Below are positions 4,180 to 13,983 of a stretch of 64,000 nt of DNA, in pieces. The position numbers and the translations under genes were made by a program. The notes under the pieces were generated by a model, which did no database searches, was not told the origin of the DNA, and saw only the letters and a program-made list of their open reading frames with translations. The DNA comes from Cyclobacteriaceae bacterium. GTDB lineage: Bacteria; Bacteroidota; Bacteroidia; Cytophagales; Cyclobacteriaceae. The first letter of the stretch is position 1, and each line of letters starts with the position of its first letter. The stretch lies in contig JAHBTY010000002.1 in assembly GCA_019638355.1 (NCBI GenBank), positions 635,001 through 699,000 of the forward strand, read 5' to 3'.

Positions 4180-6213
4180 TCAATTACCAATCGCCTGCAA
4201 AGCCGCCTCTGCAGCATAACGCACTTCGCTGTTGCGTGTAATGGTTAAAATTCGTGCAATGGATTTTTCAGCGGCAGCGGCATCCTTGCCTATCTTACCC
4301 AAAATTGTAATCAATTGATGTTGCAAGCCACCGTCCTGATCGGTGGTTTTATCCAACCGTGTGGTTAATGCATTTACTGCGGGTTTACCAATTTTTATCA
4401 ACGCTTCTTTTGCAGCTTCCGTATCATTACCATAATGCGGCAACACTGTCAACATGTAGTCAATTGCTTTGGCGTTAGTAGTTTTTAAATTCCCCAATAC
4501 ACTTATGGCCAATGTCTGAATGTTGCTCATGGCAGTTTTATTTTCCAGACTTTTTTTGTTGAGCAGATTTACCAATGTGCTCTCCAATTTTGCCGGTGGT
4601 GTTTCGGAGATTGCCAGCAACTTCATTACGCGTAGTTGCTCGGCCAGGTTGTTGCCTTTCAAAATTGCATCCGCTTCCTCCAGTGTGGGAATGACCCCTG
4701 GAATAGGAACATTGTACTTTACACAAAAGTTAATGCGATCTTCTTTCTGGCTGGGATACGGTGTAAGCAATGCATACGCAGAAAACTTATCGCGGCAACG
4801 CTGGGTGAGAATTTTTAAATCTGCCTCCGGATAGTTTTTGCGGATTTCTTCATTGGTGGTTTCGTTGTAGGTCATCTTAAAGTGCCAGGCAAAATCATAA
4901 AGTTGCTCGTGCGCTTTGGGATATTCGTTGGCATTTACAAACGTAGCCAACCACCCGATCAATTCTGTTTTGCGTTGCGGGTTGGTTTCTTCCTTGTACA
5001 TGGAACTGAGCTCGCTGAACAAAGTCCCTTTCAGTTTCTCATCGGGCGAAAGCCGCGGTGAATAAGTTTCATACACAAATTGCCGTAGCGGTTGACTTTT
5101 GGAAAGCCCTTCCATCATCTCTACATAAGCAACTTCAAAAGTTAGTGCACGGGGCAACCCCAATTTATTCTGCGCTGCCAGATCGAAATATTGTTTGATT
5201 CTGTTTTTCTGTTCGGCATCTGCTGTAGTGGCATTACCAATTAATTGTATTACATAGTTGGATAAGTAATAGTTGCCTACTTTACCCATTGCTGCAAAGC
5301 CCGACTTCCATTCGCGAGCATCCACCTGATTATCTTTGGCGAGGTAACGTATCATTTCATAGGCGCGATCATCGCCCGCGGGGTAGGCAATGGTATCTAA
5401 TGTAGCGAGCAGAAAATTTTTGTACGGTTCGGGGTCAAGTTTAAATCGCGTAAACGCATACATCACATCGTAATGTAATTTACCACACACATTATCGAAA
5501 GGCGTTTTGATTGCATCGTTTACTACTGCCGAGATTTTTTCGGGTGTAGATAAATCATTCAGATGCGGCCGAAAGGCTTCTGCTTTTTCTTTACAGATTT
5601 CGGCTTGTGTTTTGGCAGGTGTTGTGTTTCCGTTAAACGTAATTTGTACGGTATTACTATTGCCTTTGTTTTTATCAACAGGCTCAGCCACAACATCGGT
5701 TTGCGTAAACAAGGTGGCCATGTTTTTATTCATTTTGATGCGGCCCACATAACTCATGGTTATTTCACCACTGGTTACATCAATAATCCGCGCACTCACT
5801 TCTATGTACGATTTCAGTTTGGTGTACGTGCCCGATAAAATTCCATCAATGGGTGCGAGTTGGCCGATCTTCAATGCAGCCGCGGGTTTCATCAAATCGG
5901 TAAGAATAAATTCATGCTCTTTCAAAATCGCATCCATGCGCGTGCGCTCAAACACTTTTAGTTTATCAGGATGGCCCGAGATAGAACCGATAATTGTTTC
6001 GGTTAAGTATTCGCCAAAGGCTTTGCTTTGCTGCGAAGAAGGTGTGGCCGTAAACGGAACTACTGCCAGGCTGTGCGGAGTTTTTGGTGCCGGAGCAGCA
6101 ATAATTTTTGCAGCCAGTTCCTGCGTTACCGCGGGGTAACCTTTTGGTTTTTGGGCCTGTACCTGAAAGGCAATTGCGATTATGGTAAGTGCTTTTAGTA
6201 AACTTCGTATCAT
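4180..6213 (-). CDS. Secreted protein: CsgG/FlgO-like N-terminal domain and HEAT-type C-terminal repeats
   Basis: A 677-residue exported protein with a signal peptide at residues 1-20. Residues about 45-170 resemble the CsgG/FlgO fold: a SLAVVPF strand, FGEYLTETIIGSI helix, KVFERTRMDAIL, then the APIDGILSGTYTKLKSYIEVSARIIDVTSGEI pattern common to this superfamily. The middle is helical and unassigned. The last 150 residues contain HEAT-like helix pairs (KNSEVRYAAEAALQAIG type). CsgG-like domains are used in outer-membrane secretion or surface-polymer regulation, but nothing here fixes a substrate. It is monocistronic. Confidence 0.72.
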   Translation of the reverse strand: MIRSLLKALTIIAIAFQVQAQKPKGYPAVTQELAAKIIAAPAPKTPHSLAVVPFTATPSSQQSKAFGEYLTETIIGSISGHPDKLKVFERTRMDAILKEHEFILTDLMKPAAALKIGQLAPIDGILSGTYTKLKSYIEVSARIIDVTSGEITMSYVGRIKMNKNMATLFTQTDVVAEPVDKNKGNSNTVQITFNGNTTPAKTQAEICKEKAEAFRPHLNDLSTPEKISAVVNDAIKTPFDNVCGKLHYDVMYAFTRFKLDPEPYKNFLLATLDTIAYPAGDDRAYEMIRYLAKDNQVDAREWKSGFAAMGKVGNYYLSNYVIQLIGNATTADAEQKNRIKQYFDLAAQNKLGLPRALTFEVAYVEMMEGLSKSQPLRQFVYETYSPRLSPDEKLKGTLFSELSSMYKEETNPQRKTELIGWLATFVNANEYPKAHEQLYDFAWHFKMTYNETTNEEIRKNYPEADLKILTQRCRDKFSAYALLTPYPSQKEDRINFCVKYNVPIPGVIPTLEEADAILKGNNLAEQLRVMKLLAISETPPAKLESTLVNLLNKKSLENKTAMSNIQTLAISVLGNLKTTNAKAIDYMLTVLPHYGNDTEAAKEALIKIGKPAVNALTTRLDKTTDQDGGLQHQLITILGKIGKDAAAAEKSIARILTITRNSEVRYAAEAALQAIGN

Positions 6214-7171: not shown

Positions 7172-8311
7172 ATGAAAAACGAAAAGAAGAAAACCTCGCA
7201 ACTCGTTTCGATTGCCGTAATGCTGGTAGCGGGTGGTGCAATAGGATATTTAGGGGCCCAGGTGGGTGTAAAGGCTGCACAACAAATACCGGGTGTAGTT
7301 ATGGCTACGTTGGTGGTGCTGTTGATACCGGCATTCCTGCTGGTAATTGCCATACACGAAGGTGGCCATGCGCTTGCTGGCACCCGGGTAGCTTTCGATT
7401 TCAGAACCTATGTGGTTGGACCGTTCTTGTGGGACAAGCAGCCCGATGGCTGGAAGTTTATGTGGAATAAAAACATCAACACATCAGGCGGATTGGTTAT
7501 CTGTATTCCTACTGGTACCCATAACCTGGCCAAACGTTTTATGATCTATGTGGCTGGCGGGCCACTGGCTAGTCTTGCGTTGGCATTGGTTGCCGGTATA
7601 GTTTTTATGTTGCTGCGGGGTGTGGGCGAATCGGTGATCGTTCAGATTATTACTTACTTTTTTTCGATGCTTGCCTTTTTATCGGCAGCCATTTTCTTAA
7701 TCACTTCACTTCCGCTGCAGGCGGGTGGATTCTCATCGGATGGTGCCCGGGTGCTGCGCCTTTTGCGCGGTGGCGATAAAGCCCGGTTTGAAATACTGAT
7801 GTTAAAAATGGTAAGCAGCAGTATGGCCGGTATGCGCCCGGCTCAGTTGAATAAAACAGAACTGGAAGAGGCAAGCCAGTTGGGCGAACGGTTGCAATCG
7901 CCCATGGTTTTGTACATTGCCTACTATCTTTACTTATCAACACTGGATCGTAACCAGGTAGAAGAAGCAGAACAATACCTGCAGGTGTATATCAATAATG
8001 CTGATGATGTACCCGAAGGTTTACGCGGAACTGTGTGGCTGGAGGCTGCCTTCTTTTATGCTCTTGTTCGAGGTGATTTACAAAAAGCAGAAAAGTATTT
8101 TCAGTTGTATAAACCCTCGGCCCTTACACCGCTGGCCGTAGAGTATGCAACGCGTGCAGCTATGGCAAAACTAAAAGGTGAAAGCGCTGGGTTTAGCGAG
8201 TGGATTTTGAAAGCCAAACAAGCTTTACCCAACATGATGGATAAAGGCGCGATGCTGGTGGTGCAGGATAAACTTGATCTTTTGAATGCGGAGAAACCGG
8301 TTAACACATAA
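7172..8311 (+). CDS. M50-type (site-2-protease-like) integral membrane zinc metallopeptidase
   Basis: A 379-residue membrane protein. A first helix (about residues 10-30) and a second (about 41-62) lead into HEGGH (His62 to His66), the zinc-binding motif of M50 peptidases. Later conserved elements are an AGGPLASLALALVAG helix near residue 130 and SSDGARVLRLLRGG near residue 190, which takes the place of the NPDG motif. The last 170 residues are soluble and helical, reminiscent of TPR-like repeats (VEEAEQYLQVYINNADDVPEGLRG, LQKAEKYFQLYKPSAL). Such proteases cut other membrane proteins; the substrate here is unknown. It is monocistronic. Confidence 0.8.
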   Translation: MKNEKKKTSQLVSIAVMLVAGGAIGYLGAQVGVKAAQQIPGVVMATLVVLLIPAFLLVIAIHEGGHALAGTRVAFDFRTYVVGPFLWDKQPDGWKFMWNKNINTSGGLVICIPTGTHNLAKRFMIYVAGGPLASLALALVAGIVFMLLRGVGESVIVQIITYFFSMLAFLSAAIFLITSLPLQAGGFSSDGARVLRLLRGGDKARFEILMLKMVSSSMAGMRPAQLNKTELEEASQLGERLQSPMVLYIAYYLYLSTLDRNQVEEAEQYLQVYINNADDVPEGLRGTVWLEAAFFYALVRGDLQKAEKYFQLYKPSALTPLAVEYATRAAMAKLKGESAGFSEWILKAKQALPNMMDKGAMLVVQDKLDLLNAEKPVNT

Positions 8312-8351: not shown

Positions 8352-11300
8352 CTAATTTAACCCTACTTGAATAAAGGCCGCCCAATCAAATGTAAGACCG
8401 GGCATGCTGTTTTTAAGCATTTGAACCTTTGCCTGATACAGCGATTGGGATATAGATTGTTTTTTTGAAAGCGAAGCGTAAAAGGAAATCATAAATTTTT
8501 CAGTAGCCTCGTCATCAACGCGCCAGAGCGATACCACCATGTTTTTTGTTCCGGTATATAAAAATGCCCGTGTAAGTCCAATTATCCCTTCGCCATTCGC
8601 ATAGGTTCCTATTCCAGTTTCGCAAGCAGATAAGCAGATTAAATATGCGTTGCTTCGCAGGGCAAATACCTCATTCATATAAAGAATGCCATCATCGGCC
8701 GAATTGGCTTTGCGACTAAATGCAATTCCGGGTTCAATTTGGTTATTACCCGTAAAGCCATGTGTAGCCAAATGAATAATGCTAAACTTTGAAAGGTCTT
8801 CTTTCTTAAAACTTGATTCGTCTGCCTCACTTCCAATATATACTTTAGACTCACTATTTTTTTTATTCATAATTCCTACCGCCTGCTTTACTTCCTCCTG
8901 GTTTCTTAATAGCGGAGGGAAATTATGAGTTTCAATTTGCTGTACATCTGCATTACGGAGGTTGTTTGAATTATTTACCATTTTAAACTCCGGTGCCATG
9001 GCAAGCATGTTCATATTTTTTGCAGGTGCGTCAGTATAGCTGCGCCACAACAAAGTAGAAGAATACCCATAGTTAAATTGATACTTAAATACGTTATACA
9101 CCCAGGCGTATTTGCCAGCATAGCCTAATAATTCAAAATTAATCAGGTTAATAATATCGTCTGGTATAACCACAATCTTATTTATCTTTTTGTTGGATGC
9201 CTGCAAACAACTATCTACTTTTTTAAAAATCAGTTGATACAAAGCTTGTGAGCTGCTAAAAAAAGCGGAAGACTCCTTTACCGCAATGCTGTTCTTCATT
9301 GCTCTCACCTGGCGCTTAATTTCATAGCTAGAACCCAAGCTGATAAAGTATCTTTTTTTGTCGGCAAGCAAAATAGCGTAACTGTTTTTGTTGCCAATGC
9401 AATACTCAACCCAGGCTGTCTTTTGATTTTTTGATAAATAGGCTGCTTCCAAAACAGCTAAAGACACTGGTTCTTTACTGAACTTTAATGCATGATAATC
9501 AGGTAAATGATTTTGAATAGAGTCTAATAAAAAATTAAATCGGGTACGCAAAATGTGCATTTGGTCCCGATATTCCTGCAGTAACGCTCGGTCTGGTTCG
9601 CTTTGTTTGGCAAGTTCTTGTGAATATTGAAACTCAAGCTGAGCAATTGTTTTAGATAATTGATTTTCTTCCCTCAATACCTTTTCGGTAACGCGGGCAA
9701 ATGATTTTACACGATCTAAGCGAATGGCACGCTGCAGAATCTGATATTTATTCAGATTTGCGTCCTGAAAGGCACGCTCAACAAAATCAGTTTGCCCGGT
9801 TAGCTTATAAACCAGGTAATAATAATCAGTTGCCAGATCGTAAAAATCGCGTACCGCACGATTGAAGTTTATTTTATCAGCATCAGCCTGTAGCTCTGTA
9901 ATGTTGGATTGTATTACCGTTAACGAGGATTGAATTAATCCATCCGCTTGGAATAGCTGTTGTTGCGAACGCGTGCCCGCTTCATACGCTTCTAACTCTA
10001 ATTTCAACAAGTTAAAGTTTGAGGTAATCCATTCCATTTTAGAAGCATAAAAAGATTCGTTATTAACCACATCTGTATTGAGAAGGTTATTCTTCCTTGA
10101 CAGATTAAAATAGTAAATAGCTGAATCAGCCTGCTTAAAGGTTGTTCCTATATCATTATATAATTGTACTAATTGAGGATGAGTTACAGGATAAATCCGT
10201 TCATAGTCTGAAATAAGTTGGCGGTAATAGGTTCTGCTTGAATCAAGCAAGCCAACTGCTTTTAAATTGGCAGCCTTGTTTTGTCTAACTTTTTTATACA
10301 AATCCGAATCGGGTTTAAGCTTTTTCTCCAGCGCAGTTAAGAGTTGCAGCGATACCTGAACCTGACCTTCTTGATTGGCCAGGTTAGCCCTGTTAAAATA
10401 ATACCACAATTTCTGCTCCTCAGCTTCATCCGTTGAATCCCTATAAAATTCTTCAAGTTGGTTAAGCCACTTTCCTGCATCTTCTAAAAGCGTTTGACTA
10501 ATCTGCATAGCTACTATGTTGTTGATAATTCTTGCATATACGTTTCCATAATATGTTTTGTACGGAGTTATAATTTCGAGTGCTTTCAGAAACTGTTGCA
10601 AAGCCTCTTCCTGCCGGTAGTGGTTGGTCAATGACGCTGCGTAATTCTGATATATTAAAGCCTTTCGGGGAGGATCTAAAGCTGAAATATCTGTCCAAAG
10701 CACAGCCTCCTCATAATATTGGATAGACCTAATAAAGTTTTCATACGAATCATAAAATACTCCCAGATTATTATAAGCCAAAGCCAATTCATTGGGGTTG
10801 TTTTGTTTTTGTTTGTTAAGCGCCAGAGCTGTTAAATAGTACTTCTCCGCTAATCTATAATCCCACAATGCATGATAGGTTGCACCCAGATTATTGTAGA
10901 TTTTTACAAGCATTAAACTTTTATCAAAGGGTGTGTCTTTATATTTTTTTTCTGACTGGTGTAAGCAAAGTAAAGCCGAATCAAGCTCGTTGTTTCTCAA
11001 GTAAGTTGTTCCGAGCCAAAATAAGGAATGGGCTATTTTAACCTTGTAGCGGGTTGTGTCTGTACTATAGTATGCAATTGCCGTTTTAAGTGTGTGCTTA
11101 CTGTCATCCGGTTTATTTTGTTGAAGGAAGTAATAACCCTTCCAATAATTTAACATGGCAGAAGCTTCACTGCTTGAGCATTTTTTTATCAAGCTTTCAG
11201 CTAGTTCAAGTTTTTGATTTGCCTCAGACAAAAATTTTTTATGCTGAAAGACAAGGGCCAGGAATATATTGTACCGGAGTTGCTGGCACGGTGTTAAGCG

Positions 11301-11531
11301 GTGAGCGTTTATCAGGTTTAATGCTGAATCCATCAGCATAAATTGATCTCCTAACAGAGCAGCTTCGGCAATTAACAAGTTACGCTCATCCGGTTGATTA
11401 ATTTTGGCCGCATAATAGAGCGAAGCTGCTACTTCTTCTGAATCAAAACTTGCTTGCAGTAAATCAGATTGGGCAAGCCCATTAGCAGAAGCAAAAATCC
11501 AACACGCTACTATAAGGCCAGTTGCCTTCAC
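8352..11531 (-). CDS. Secreted TPR-CHAT cysteine protease
   Basis: A 1059-residue protein starting at GTG 11531, with a signal peptide (about residues 1-20, ending ANGLAQ). Residues about 70-500 are tetratricopeptide-like helix pairs (for example LALAYNNLGVFYDSYENFIRSIQYYEEAV). A helical linker follows, and the C-terminal 350 residues are a CHAT domain, a caspase/separase-like cysteine protease. The catalytic pair is visible: His924 in HLATHG and Cys970 in SACETG, followed by the conserved GEGIIGLTRAFLYTG and VVSLWRVDDEAT blocks. Export places it outside the cytoplasm. The start lies 3 bp after the stop of the preceding small frame (TGATTTGTG), implying translational coupling with the Thr-rich-tail ORFs upstream. 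Confidence 0.9.
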   Translation of the reverse strand: MKATGLIVACWIFASANGLAQSDLLQASFDSEEVAASLYYAAKINQPDERNLLIAEAALLGDQFMLMDSALNLINAHRLTPCQQLRYNIFLALVFQHKKFLSEANQKLELAESLIKKCSSSEASAMLNYWKGYYFLQQNKPDDSKHTLKTAIAYYSTDTTRYKVKIAHSLFWLGTTYLRNNELDSALLCLHQSEKKYKDTPFDKSLMLVKIYNNLGATYHALWDYRLAEKYYLTALALNKQKQNNPNELALAYNNLGVFYDSYENFIRSIQYYEEAVLWTDISALDPPRKALIYQNYAASLTNHYRQEEALQQFLKALEIITPYKTYYGNVYARIINNIVAMQISQTLLEDAGKWLNQLEEFYRDSTDEAEEQKLWYYFNRANLANQEGQVQVSLQLLTALEKKLKPDSDLYKKVRQNKAANLKAVGLLDSSRTYYRQLISDYERIYPVTHPQLVQLYNDIGTTFKQADSAIYYFNLSRKNNLLNTDVVNNESFYASKMEWITSNFNLLKLELEAYEAGTRSQQQLFQADGLIQSSLTVIQSNITELQADADKINFNRAVRDFYDLATDYYYLVYKLTGQTDFVERAFQDANLNKYQILQRAIRLDRVKSFARVTEKVLREENQLSKTIAQLEFQYSQELAKQSEPDRALLQEYRDQMHILRTRFNFLLDSIQNHLPDYHALKFSKEPVSLAVLEAAYLSKNQKTAWVEYCIGNKNSYAILLADKKRYFISLGSSYEIKRQVRAMKNSIAVKESSAFFSSSQALYQLIFKKVDSCLQASNKKINKIVVIPDDIINLINFELLGYAGKYAWVYNVFKYQFNYGYSSTLLWRSYTDAPAKNMNMLAMAPEFKMVNNSNNLRNADVQQIETHNFPPLLRNQEEVKQAVGIMNKKNSESKVYIGSEADESSFKKEDLSKFSIIHLATHGFTGNNQIEPGIAFSRKANSADDGILYMNEVFALRSNAYLICLSACETGIGTYANGEGIIGLTRAFLYTGTKNMVVSLWRVDDEATEKFMISFYASLSKKQSISQSLYQAKVQMLKNSMPGLTFDWAAFIQVGLN

Positions 11532-11534
11532 AAA

Positions 11535-11693
11535 TCAGGTAGATGTTACAGTGGTTGTAGTAGCCGTACTGGTAGTTCCGCTACTAACCGTTATTCTTTT
11601 GGTAGCTGATTTCCGTTGCCGCTTTGGCTTTTTAATAATCAGTTTTTGGTCATCCCCGATAATTTCATCAAACCGCTTTCTTATCTGAATTAT
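11535..11693 (-). CDS. Thr-rich C-terminal tail, -1 frame continuation of the small secreted protein
   Basis: This 52-codon frame begins inside a run of eight A where the 95-codon frame (11690-11977) stops, and has no ATG of its own. It encodes a basic segment (KKPKRQRKSATKR) and ends in TATTTTVTST. That ending is nearly identical to the end of the 23-residue peptide at 11984-12055, and the DNA copies differ chiefly at synonymous positions, strong evidence that this frame is translated. Its TGA lies 3 bp before the GTG of the CHAT gene. A -1 ribosomal shift on A-AAA-AAA, a fixed frameshift mutation or a homopolymer sequencing error would each explain the arrangement. Joined to the upstream frame it gives about 147 residues. 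Confidence 0.6.
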   Translation of the reverse strand: MIQIRKRFDEIIGDDQKLIIKKPKRQRKSATKRITVSSGTTSTATTTTVTST

Positions 11694-11977
11694 TTTTTTT
11701 CTCTATGAATAACACAGATTCTTTTAACATCCGTTGTATTTATTGATTTAACCGCGGATACACTAATTATAAAAGTTTCAAAACTTTTTTCCTTTTCAAC
11801 AACTATTAAAACCGTAGCGTTTGGTGAAGTTAACCGTACGTCCACATCAACTTGCTTTCCTTTAAAACCTGTGAGGTATAGAATCTTATCTCCAACCAAT
11901 GCCTCATAATTAAATTCAGTCTGCCCCCACGCCAGCGAGCAATTAACTAAAAGAATAACAAAAAAAAATTTATACAT
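11690..11977 (-). CDS. Small secreted protein of unknown function, apparently frameshifted at its 3' end
   Basis: The 95-residue product begins with a signal peptide (about residues 1-18, LVNCSLAWGQ). The mature part is beta-rich (ILYLTGFKGKQVDVDVRL, TVLIVVEKEKSFETFIISVSAV). It ends EKK-stop directly after a run of eight A, and the -1 frame remains open for 52 more codons into a Thr-rich tail. The ATG lies 6 bp after the stop of the 23-codon peptide gene, and the continued frame ends 3 bp before the CHAT protease start, so it sits in the middle of a tight operon. I do not recognise a family; substrate, partner or inhibitor of the protease are all possible and unproven. Confidence 0.65.
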   Translation of the reverse strand: MYKFFFVILLVNCSLAWGQTEFNYEALVGDKILYLTGFKGKQVDVDVRLTSPNATVLIVVEKEKSFETFIISVSAVKSINTTDVKRICVIHREKK

Positions 11978-11983
11978 AAATTT

Positions 11984-12055
11984 TTAAGTTGACGTTACAG
12001 TAGTTGTAGTGGCTGTAATTGTAGTGGAGCTAGAAACCGAAGTACGAACAGGCAT
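11984..12055 (-). CDS. 23-residue Thr/Ser-rich peptide, duplicate of the neighbouring tail
   Basis: A short ORF beginning MPVRTSVSSS and ending TATTTTVTST. An in-frame stop lies three codons before the ATG, so it is an independent ORF. It starts 16 bp after the stop of the 107-codon gene and ends 6 bp before the ATG of the 95-codon gene. Its last 16 codons align without gaps to the last 16 codons at 11535; seven codons differ synonymously and only two by amino acid (the stop codons also differ, TAA versus TGA). That pattern argues for selection on the peptide sequence. It has no signal peptide. Its role is unknown; it could be a recognition tag, a cleavage substrate or a peptide precursor for the CHAT protease. 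Confidence 0.6.
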   Translation of the reverse strand: MPVRTSVSSSTTITATTTTVTST

Positions 12056-12071
12056 AAATAATTAGGTTAAG

Positions 12072-12395
12072 TTAACTCGGTGTTAAATCACATTGGCTTA
12101 AATCTCCTTTCGCACTTTCATTCCAGTGCGTTAGCAATAAGTTAAGCGGTGTTTCAGCACTTGCCGGATTGCTAAAGAGTGTGGCTACAGGTGTATAACT
12201 GGCACGAATGCGGGCAAATTCTGTAGGTGTAGCAGATGCGTGATAAACAATTACCCAATAGTTGCATCCGGTGTCATCTCCGTATAATTCAGTGTTCAGA
12301 GTTTTGGTTTCACCGGGCTCCACTGTAAAAGGCAACCATTTGGTGCTATCCAGTGGCTGGTTAAAAAAGGGGCCGAAAGCTGTAGTTGTCAACAT
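12072..12395 (-). CDS. Small protein of unknown function upstream of the CHAT operon genes
   Basis: A 107-residue protein with short beta-strand-like segments (WLPFTVEPGETKTLNTELYG, CNYWVIVYHASATP) and a C-terminal part containing two Cys in all (CNY and QCD). No signal peptide is seen from ATG 12395. The frame is open about 20 codons upstream (GVGISTKNLTG) without a better start, and the -1 frame before that also reads like protein (NNYIGKEGLYG), so the annotated 5' end may be incomplete or frameshifted. It is the first of the small genes leading into the CHAT protease. I do not recognise a family. Confidence 0.5.
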   Translation of the reverse strand: MLTTTAFGPFFNQPLDSTKWLPFTVEPGETKTLNTELYGDDTGCNYWVIVYHASATPTEFARIRASYTPVATLFSNPASAETPLNLLLTHWNESAKGDLSQCDLTPS

Positions 12396-12499: not shown

Positions 12500-13267
12500 C
12501 TAGCCTTCCTGTTCCCGTTGTTTCATCGATTCAATCAAAGTTTTTCGTTTTTTGTCGGAACGATTGCCATGTGCAAACATAATGGGGGTGTATAAAAAAT
12601 AGACAAACCCCGCTAACGGACCTGCGAGCCAACTATTAATAAAAATAACTGACAAAACCACCGATGCCAGTGGTACCACGGCCATTAACAAATTGGTGCG
12701 AATGCTGGTTTGGGTATCAAACTTTTCGAGTTCGCTTAATCCTAATTCATCAGCTTTGCTTAAGGCATAGCGGTACATCTGCATTAGCACCAAAAAAACA
12801 AACGTAGCTCCAATGCCATAAATGATCATGAGTTGACCCATATCCTGCGCGCGGATCATATTTTTCAAATCGTTGAGCAGGGTTTGATCGCCAACCAGGT
12901 ATCCTACCGGAAAAAGTATAATGATTTTGGTGAGAAACTTTAATGGATACACGTAGAACAACACGATCGCCAGAAAAAGAGTATTCAACACCAATATTCG
13001 ACTGTTCCGTAATCCATAGCGCAAATAAAATTGAAGGTGCTCGTACCAGATAAGCATGATGAGGGTAATACACACCAGAAAGGGCAACAGCTCATAGGCA
13101 AAACGCTTTACCTGTTCAAAGTTGGTAGGCGGTGAAGTGGAGATCAGCAACAGTGTAATCGCCAACGCAAAAATGGCATCGCTGAAATTTTCCAACCGGC
13201 CAGGTTCTTTTCCGCGCAAACGAAAATCGGTTTCTGTAATTTTTTCGGTTAAGACCTGGCGAATCAT
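12500..13267 (-). CDS. TMEM175-family (DUF1211) ion channel protein
   Basis: A 255-residue membrane protein. The signature RLENFSDAIFALAITLLL (about residues 24-42) matches the family's R-x-x-x-FSD motif, in which the first helix lines a potassium-selective pore. Several further hydrophobic helices follow, and the tail is basic (GNRSDKKRKTLIE). Bacterial members usually have a single six-helix repeat, consistent with this length. It overlaps the PrsW-type peptidase gene by 4 bp, so the two are co-translated. Ion selectivity is known for the family, not shown here. Confidence 0.82.
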   Translation of the reverse strand: MIRQVLTEKITETDFRLRGKEPGRLENFSDAIFALAITLLLISTSPPTNFEQVKRFAYELLPFLVCITLIMLIWYEHLQFYLRYGLRNSRILVLNTLFLAIVLFYVYPLKFLTKIIILFPVGYLVGDQTLLNDLKNMIRAQDMGQLMIIYGIGATFVFLVLMQMYRYALSKADELGLSELEKFDTQTSIRTNLLMAVVPLASVVLSVIFINSWLAGPLAGFVYFLYTPIMFAHGNRSDKKRKTLIESMKQREQEG

Positions 13268-13983
13268 GTGTTTTCGGTGTTGACGGGTTGGGATGAATCC
13301 GGAGTTTGATTTTTAAAAGGAGAAGCCAACTGATGAATGTGGATTGCCTTTTTAGAAAGCCAGATGCCCACCACTAATGAAAGCAAGGCTCCCAACACAA
13401 TACCGGGTACCCAAGATATAAACAGACAATAGTCGTATGCGCCATGAAATAATGTAGCAACCCCTAACGCATGAAATGCATAATACGATTTTCTGTGTTC
13501 AAACTTGGCTTTTCCTAAATAAAAACCCATAAGCACGGCAAAAGTAGCATGGGCCGGCACGGCTGTAAACAGACGCATTATCGCAGTACCCATGCCACCA
13601 TTAAATGCGTACAACACATTTTCCAATGTGGCGAAGCCCATACTCACCATTACGGAATAAACAATGCCATCGAAGGGTTCGTTGAAATGATTGCTTCGGT
13701 ATAAAATACCACGCACAAAAATGAATTTGCTGAACTCCTCTACAAGGGCAACTATCAGAAAGGCGTGTACCGCCTGTTCGCTCAAGCTACCCGGATCGAT
13801 GCTTACAAACTGATCGATTATACTGCTAATCAGCAGGGTTACCACCACACTCAGAATTCCGAAAAAGAAAGCGCGTAACAATAACCCGATGGGTTCGCGT
13901 TCATAATGATCTTTCAGATAGATATAAACACCTATGGCTACACCAGGTGCCAAGGCGATTGCAAGTAGAATAAGCGCGTACAC
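13264..13983 (-). CDS. PrsW-family intramembrane metallopeptidase
   Basis: A 239-residue protein with about eight hydrophobic helices, starting at GTG 13983. The PrsW signatures are present: VEEFSKFIFVR with the paired Glu, ATLENVLYAF with a further Glu, and the HATFAVLMGFYLG helix carrying a conserved His. In Firmicutes PrsW cleaves an anti-sigma factor; in Bacteroidota the substrates are generally unknown. It overlaps the TMEM175-type gene by 4 bp and lies 2 bp from the preceding membrane gene, so the three form one operon. Confidence 0.88.
   Translation of the reverse strand: MYALILLAIALAPGVAIGVYIYLKDHYEREPIGLLLRAFFFGILSVVVTLLISSIIDQFVSIDPGSLSEQAVHAFLIVALVEEFSKFIFVRGILYRSNHFNEPFDGIVYSVMVSMGFATLENVLYAFNGGMGTAIMRLFTAVPAHATFAVLMGFYLGKAKFEHRKSYYAFHALGVATLFHGAYDYCLFISWVPGIVLGALLSLVVGIWLSKKAIHIHQLASPFKNQTPDSSQPVNTENT

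What the first reader, a model, noticed from the sequence alone, without database searches (positions are those of the whole stretch)
8352..12395. Possible undescribed CHAT-protease system: secreted TPR-CHAT enzyme with duplicated Thr-rich tail peptides
Seen directly: four ORFs on one strand with gaps of 16, 6 and 3 bp lead into a secreted 1059-residue TPR-CHAT protein with an intact His924/Cys970 pair. One small ORF is a 23-codon peptide ending TATTTTVTST, and another ends in almost the same tail. Known: CHAT proteases such as separase relatives and the Craspase TPR-CHAT cut specific protein partners, usually encoded nearby. Inference: the Thr-rich tails could be protease-recognition tags, substrates or a secreted peptide product, and the 107-residue ORF may be another partner. 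I know of no described system with this layout.
Basis: partly seen in the sequence, partly recalled or inferred. Interest (0 to 1): 0.8.

Follow-up and report, generated by a model that had tools for sequence, protein, structure and literature searches.

The report
Protease operon with twin peptide tails
A rare four-gene operon in Cyclobacteriaceae-type bacteria pairs a caspase-like TPR-CHAT protease with a secreted partner whose C-terminal tail is repeated as a free-standing micro-protein of 23-25 residues; because the pairing recurs in related species it looks like a dedicated peptide-recognition or peptide-release system whose protease-partner relation can now be tested.

Summary
Four minus-strand genes (A 107 aa, B 23 aa, C apparently secreted, D TPR-CHAT) form a real module. 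The same order recurs in four other species; A was found in 5 of 62 genus genomes, the same five that carry full-length D. B recurs as a 23-25-codon ORF in 5 of 5 loci and resembles the tail of C in its own locus. Residues match while codons have diverged, so the likeness is kept at peptide level. A sister clade of D (two loci) has an upstream lipoprotein with a different, unchanged tail motif but no A found and no B seen, so the tail appears to go with C and D. Best reading: C is D's dedicated partner or substrate, the tail its docking or released peptide, B a stand-alone copy. No cleavage, binding or expression is shown; B and A lack apparent signal peptides while C and D have them, which is unexplained. 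New variant of a known kind, nearest in logic to Csx29-Csx30 and FxSxx-COOH systems.

The parts
12072..12395 (-). Gene A: 107-aa protein without evident signal peptide (by eye); conserved YWxIxY, LLTHW and QCDL motifs
   Evidence: ORF; orthologues in 4 other loci, 5 of 62 genus genomes; predicted all-beta, mean pLDDT 75.3; no Pfam, PADLOC, NCBIfam or PHROGs match at the limits used, best Pfam E 0.016 in 1 of 4 members
11984..12055 (-). Gene B: 23-codon micro-ORF MPVRTSVSSSTTITATTTTVTST
   Evidence: ORF; 23-25 codons in 5 of 5 loci, between A and C
11690..11977 (-). Gene C, 5' part: apparent signal peptide (by eye) and beta-rich core, 95 aa up to a stop after an A8 run
   Evidence: low-confidence beta model of the G008 orthologue; profile match columns 1-98, E=1.4e-10
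11693..11700 (-). A8 run (T8 on the + strand) where the frame of C is broken
   Evidence: the four relatives have C in one frame
11535..11702 (-). Gene C, 3' part in the -1 frame: basic linker and Thr-rich tail, stop TGA
   Evidence: profile match columns 92-144, E=0.0014
11535..11597 (-). C tail RITVSSGTTSTATTTTVTST and stop, matching B
8352..11531 (-). Gene D: TPR-CHAT protein, 1059 aa, GTG start, apparent signal peptide (by eye)
   Evidence: Pfam CHAT and TPR; orthologues 38-48% identical
8361..9251 (-). CHAT domain of D (residues 761-1057), with H924 and C970

Best explanation
A-B-C-D is one functional module. D is a secreted, probably active CHAT cysteine protease. C is its dedicated secreted partner, most likely its substrate: a poorly conserved beta-rich body, a basic linker and a C-terminal tail of about 20 residues. 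The tail is the specific element: either D (TPR groove or CHAT surface) docks on it, or D cuts in the basic linker and releases it as a peptide. B is a stand-alone copy of that tail, able to compete for the same site or stand in for the released peptide. A, a small beta-domain protein, is probably a cytoplasmic handler of B or of C's tail before export. Shown: the genes, their order, their recurrence, the peptide-level likeness of B and C tail, the conserved His and Cys. Inferred: secretion (signal sequences read by eye), docking or cleavage, and the roles of B and A.
For: (1) Co-inheritance: A in 5 of 62 genus genomes, C profile in 5 of 60, full-length D orthologues in 5 of 62 plus one diverged relative; the same five genomes each time, order A-B-C-D in 5 of 5. 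(2) B and C tail alike: shuffles reaching the score 0, 0, 2 and 42 of 5000 for window, G008, G013, G032 and 11 of 5000 for G024. (3) Kept as peptide: among residues identical between B and C tail the codon differs in 9 of 16, 10 of 14, 6 of 8, 5 of 8 and 9 of 9. (4) The true pairing of B with C tail is best of 24 pairings. (5) B and C tail share an Arg followed by x-x-[VIL]-x-[ST] in 5 of 5 loci, and the residues after that Arg number 19/19, 19/19, 20/20 (window, G008, G032) and 20/18 (G013, G024) (by eye; B lengths). (6) The sister clade D' (99/99) has a lipoprotein directly upstream whose tail motif ITSKDGAGGDGV is unchanged between two proteins 42% identical overall; A not found there, no B seen by eye. 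(7) The window-type tail ending is at the six B and C sites of G000, G008 and G032; one further match each in G000 and G008 lies in a 13- or 14-residue stop-to-stop segment, no gene. (8) Precedent: Csx29 cleaves Csx30 of the same locus and recognises its C-terminal domain (PMC10028731, passages).
Against: No binding, cleavage or expression data. B and A have no apparent signal peptide while C and D do, so B would not obviously meet D. The pairing test has four independent loci (best possible 1 of 24) and is carried mainly by G013: G032's B scores 43-44 with the window's and G008's C tails and 44 with its own, and G008's B scores 64 with the window's C tail and 67 with its own. Against shuffles the likeness is weak in G032 (42 of 5000). 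Thr/Ser-rich sequence makes likeness easy. Homology of C to the sister clade's lipoprotein is weak (hhalign probability 11.6%, E=0.0026) and the C profile did not find it at E<=0.01 (G011 and G049 both without a match); position is the main link. The Arg is not in the sister tails. In the window itself C and its tail are in different frames.
Confidence: 0.45

Rival explanations
1. Self-assembly motif: B and C tails are beta-strand segments that co-assemble (amyloid-like or strand complementation), as the paired BASS motifs of adjacent genes are thought to do; D is recruited to or regulated by the assembly.
For: Paired short motifs in neighbouring genes; beta-prone Thr/Val sequence; tail at pLDDT under 50 in the model of the G008 protein; a review says BASS motifs also occur, less often, with CHAT domains (PMC7889193, passages).
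Against: BASS motifs pair an NLR N-terminus with an effector C-terminus; no NLR in the operon, and the tailed partner appears secreted. Last residues are kept or change together, which docking explains more simply (inference).
Confidence: 0.17
2. B is a regulatory leader ORF: its translation couples A to C, and its likeness to the C tail is a by-product of an old duplication.
For: B ends 2-15 bp before C in the five loci; ATGCCTGTTCGTAC is identical at DNA level in window, G008 and G024.
Against: The rest of B keeps residues while codons diverge from the C tail, and its ending follows the tail type of its own locus in G013 and G024; a leader ORF need not do this.
Confidence: 0.13
3. Processed-peptide (RiPP-like or pheromone) system: the tail is a product that is exported or modified; D is the maturation protease.
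For: FxSxx-COOH type systems have a variable precursor with a more conserved C-terminal peptide, a dedicated peptidase and TPR proteins (PMC7159879, passages); D weakly matches NF040586 FxSxx_TPR (18.9 bits, cut-off 300).
Against: No modifying gene lies within the module in the five loci; B has no leader; the NCBIfam match is far under its cut-off.
Confidence: 0.15
4. C is decaying in the window and the tails have no shared role; their likeness is low-complexity drift.
For: Frame of C broken at A8; tails are low complexity; G032's likeness is weak against shuffles (42 of 5000).
Against: Four relatives keep the tail in frame; B and C tails hold residues against synonymous divergence; the window's tail, though out of frame, still scores 72 with B, 0 of 5000 shuffles.
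Confidence: 0.08

Closest known systems
Csx29 (TPR-CHAT) and Csx30, type III-E CRISPR (Craspase, DiCASP)
   Same: TPR-CHAT protease; substrate encoded in the same locus and recognised through its C-terminal domain (PMC10028731, passages)
   Different: No Cas7-11, CRISPR or sigma gene in this operon; D and C appear secreted; no micro-ORF copy of a substrate tail in the passages read
FxSxx-COOH and related peptide-processing systems
   Same: Variable precursor with more conserved C-terminal peptide, dedicated peptidase, TPR proteins (PMC7159879, passages)
   Different: Peptidase there is zincin-like, with radical SAM in the FxSxx type; neither is in this operon; no free copy of the peptide in the passages read
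BASS amyloid-signalling pairs
   Same: Short motif shared by adjacent genes, sometimes with CHAT domains (PMC7889193, passages)
   Different: No NLR; here the copies are a free micro-protein and a secreted protein's tail
Other TPR-CHAT genes of the family, such as the C5 copy in this genome
   Same: Apparent signal peptide and, in many, a tightly linked upstream gene
   Different: Upstream partners look unrelated; no tail pair scored above the random control

Membership tests
CHAT peptidase family (PF12770) | CHAT domain above gathering score | tested here: met
   181.8 bits against cut-off 24
CHAT peptidase family (PF12770) | His and Cys catalytic pair | tested here: met
   H924 and C970 invariant in 5 of 5; that these are the catalytic residues is recalled
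CHAT peptidase family (PF12770) | Proteolytic activity | not testable with these tools
   needs purified enzyme
Type III-E CRISPR Csx29/Csx30 | Cas7-11, Csx30 and CASP-sigma genes in the locus | tested here: not met
   PADLOC: 0 families in 7 proteins scanned, D, A, a C orthologue and neighbours among them; no sigma-factor match among the 8 window proteins scanned in Pfam. No direct search for Cas7-11 or CRISPR arrays was made
FxSxx-COOH system | FxSxx C-terminus | tested here: not met
   B and C tails end VTST, ITST, VVAT, VVSA or VVSS
FxSxx-COOH system | FxSxx-type TPR protein and radical-SAM gene | tested here: inconclusive
   TPR match 18.9 bits against 300; no further gene inside the module, but neighbours were not all family-searched
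BASS amyloid signalling | NLR protein with the motif at its N-terminus | tested here: not met
   the copies are a micro-ORF and the C tail; D's Pfam matches are CHAT and TPR only
BASS amyloid signalling | Motif forms amyloid | not testable with these tools
   needs fibre assays

The most novel reading that the evidence does not exclude
A peptide-release protease with a built-in peptide mimic: D cuts the C-terminal peptide off secreted C, and the cell separately makes the same peptide (B) without a secretion signal, so that one peptide sequence acts on both sides of the membrane, as signal outside and as inhibitor or immunity factor inside. Homopolymer runs in C (T9 and A8 in the window, A8 in G008, A7 in G032) might also switch the tail on and off.
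Probability: 0.15. Interest if true: 0.78.

Novelty: new variant of a known kind. Interest (0 to 1): 0.52.

Why it matters
To my knowledge (recalled) few bacterial TPR-CHAT proteases have a known substrate or activator. Here a concrete partner and a 20-residue candidate recognition element can be named from sequence, with a natural free-peptide version of it, so the protease-partner relation becomes testable with synthetic peptides. It also shows a micro-protein mirroring a neighbour's tail, a pattern that minimum-length gene calling would miss.

Tried and rejected
Fold of A and C: AlphaFold2 models (A mean pLDDT 75.3; C 54.2) gave no PDB match at E<=0.001. A against C: hhalign probability 0.1%, so not shown to be paralogues. 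A-B as one protein by stop read-through: A and B share a frame only in G008 and G032, 2 of 5; rejected. Programmed frameshift at A8: a slippery-looking run with a stop right behind it, but the 70 bases downstream fold weakly (-8.1 kcal/mol, no shuffle control) and the relatives have no run at that place; left open beside assembly error and mutation. Homopolymer check: of 12 runs of 8 or more bases in the window, nine lie in ORFs of at least 150 aa; since an ORF is open by definition this is a weak check, but in seven of the nine the frame goes on at least 80 codons past the run, in two only 26 and 11. G205 hit to A (E=2.1e-4) has three stops inside; the 3.2 kb around it, translated, shows no module by eye (the longer stretch L043 was fetched but not read); rejected. 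DUF1935 in C: 20.4 bits, cut-off 27, 1 of 4 members of A4; not used. Viral contigs: none confirmed. Plasmids: no match to A. Class-wide sample for A: 1 of 295, the window's own. Tail-pair scan: I chose 40 of the TPR-CHAT rows listed and fetched their upstream stretches; with G011 and the four module loci that makes 45, of which 41 gave a pair to score; L069, L084 and L097, among others, are cut short by contig ends. G662 has a truncated CHAT gene at a contig end, 31-36% identical to D orthologues and 37% to G011; its upstream is lost, so it was not used. Literature: ten searches showed no paper describing this layout in the rows listed; five returned nothing, and the library is open-access only.
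Full report
What is there. On the minus strand, 12395 to 8352, lie gene A (107 aa), gene B (23 aa), gene C (95 aa to its in-frame stop) and gene D (1059 aa). D has a CHAT domain at residues 761-1057 (181.8 bits, cut-off 24) and TPR matches. A has no match in Pfam, PADLOC, NCBIfam or PHROGs at the limits used beyond Pfam E 0.016 in 1 of 4 orthologues; C reaches DUF1935 under its cut-off in 1 of 4. B was not searched for families. Signal peptides were judged by eye: C and D begin with hydrophobic stretches, mostly ending before a Gln; A and B do not.

Correction of the reading. The tail that mirrors B just before D is not the end of an ORF with its own start. It is the 3' end of C in the -1 frame after an A8 run at 11693-11700. 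In the four other species C runs through core, linker and tail in one frame of 137-149 codons, and a profile of those four finds both pieces in the window, overlapping by a few columns. Whether the break is an assembly error, a mutation or a slippage site is open; the homopolymer check that I made is weak.

Recurrence. Profile searches found A in 5 of 62 genus genomes. In evenly drawn samples it was found in 3 of 295 family genomes (one of them G205, rejected), 2 of 390 order genomes (one G205) and 1 of 295 class genomes. Full-length D orthologues are 38-48% identical to the window's; at E<=1e-120, 6 of 62 genus genomes match D, the sixth (G011) a diverged relative. So the module is narrow: five genomes, of which G013 and G024 are near-identical, giving four independent loci. 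Neighbours (by eye): G032, G013 and G024 share genes on both sides, so there the module descends in place; the window and G008 have other neighbours. It thus sits in three settings and keeps its four genes together in each.

B is real by comparison. In 5 of 5 loci an ORF of 23-25 codons beginning MPVRT, MSVRT or MPGVRT sits between A and C, with gaps of 3-16 and 2-15 bp. Against the C tail of its own locus, composition-keeping shuffles reach the score in 0 (window), 0 (G008), 2 (G013), 42 (G032) of 5000 and 11 of 5000 (G024). Among residues identical between the two, codons differ in 9 of 16, 10 of 14, 6 of 8, 5 of 8 and 9 of 9: an old likeness kept by selection on the peptide rather than a recent DNA copy. 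The true pairing of B with C tail is the best of 24, the strongest result that four loci can give. It is uneven: G032's B is as like the window's and G008's C tails as its own. The clearest change is in G013 and G024, where both B and C end in VV[SA] plus one residue rather than [VI]TST. On the D tree G032 branches first among the five (96/94 for the other four), so by parsimony B and C changed in step on at least one branch.

The tail goes with C and D. The sister clade of D (G011, G049; 99/99 for the joint group) has a lipoprotein of 164-165 aa directly upstream. The two are 42% identical overall, yet their tails share ITSKDGAGGDGV without a change. That motif was found once in each of the two genomes and in none of the other 58 searched. 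A was not found in them and no B was seen in the upstream translations. Against this: homology of the lipoprotein to C is weak, the C profile did not find it, and the link rests mainly on position. A scan for tail pairs in 45 stretches scored the four module loci at 27, 28, 32 and 51 and everything else at 19 or less, 41 stretches giving a score; the window's pair scores 50, and of 300 random window stretches 271 gave a pair, best 23. In G000, G008 and G032 the tail ending is at the B and C sites; the one further match each in G000 and G008 lies in a 13- or 14-residue open segment.

Mechanism. I favour C as D's dedicated partner, most likely substrate, with the tail as docking or released peptide and B as its free copy. 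Each locus has basic residues before the tail, fewest in G024, and an Arg where B and the tail begin to align (by eye). Recalled, not tested: several clan CD peptidases, separase among them, cut after Arg, which makes the linker a plausible site. D's TPR region matches kinesin light chain and other TPR proteins of the PDB by sequence; peptide binding by those is recalled, and makes tail docking plausible. The compartment problem (B and A without apparent signal peptides) is the weakest point; a cytoplasmic role for A and B before export of C is the simplest way round it and is a guess.

Comparison. D passes the sequence tests of the CHAT family. The module fails a tested defining feature of type III-E CRISPR, FxSxx-COOH and BASS systems, so it is filed under none of them, though it may work like any of them. 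Ten searches of an open-access library listed no paper on such a layout; five of them returned nothing, and of the papers only passages of PMC10028731, PMC7889193 and PMC7159879 were seen.

Noticed in passing
7172-8311 (+), 12500-13267 (-), 13264-13983 (-): The module is flanked here by an M50-type peptidase, a TMEM175-type channel protein and a PrsW-type intramembrane protease; by eye these are not the neighbours in the other four loci.
   Followed up: partly
L020-L026 (G000 contigs C1, C2, C3, C5): Eight further CHAT genes were flagged by motif in the own genome, several tight behind unrelated genes. One type, behind a protein bearing GCSDAGFCTMGAM, is visible in at least seven of the 40 upstream stretches.
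   Followed up: partly
L092, L101, L104, L105: Four TPR-CHAT genes lie behind a sigma-factor-like gene and a second gene of 245-263 aa, recalling CASP-sigma and Csx30; judged by eye from sequence only.
   Followed up: no
11960-11968 and 11693-11700; C gene of L013 at its nucleotide 350: Gene C carries T9 and A8 runs in the window, and C of G008 carries an A8 run with its frame intact: possible switching tracts.
   Followed up: partly
11984-11997 region of B and its start at 12055; L013, L016: The first 14 bases of B, ATGCCTGTTCGTAC, are identical in the window, G008 and G024 although the rest has diverged.
   Followed up: no
4180-6213 (-): A 677-aa protein with FlgO and CsgG matches.
   Followed up: no
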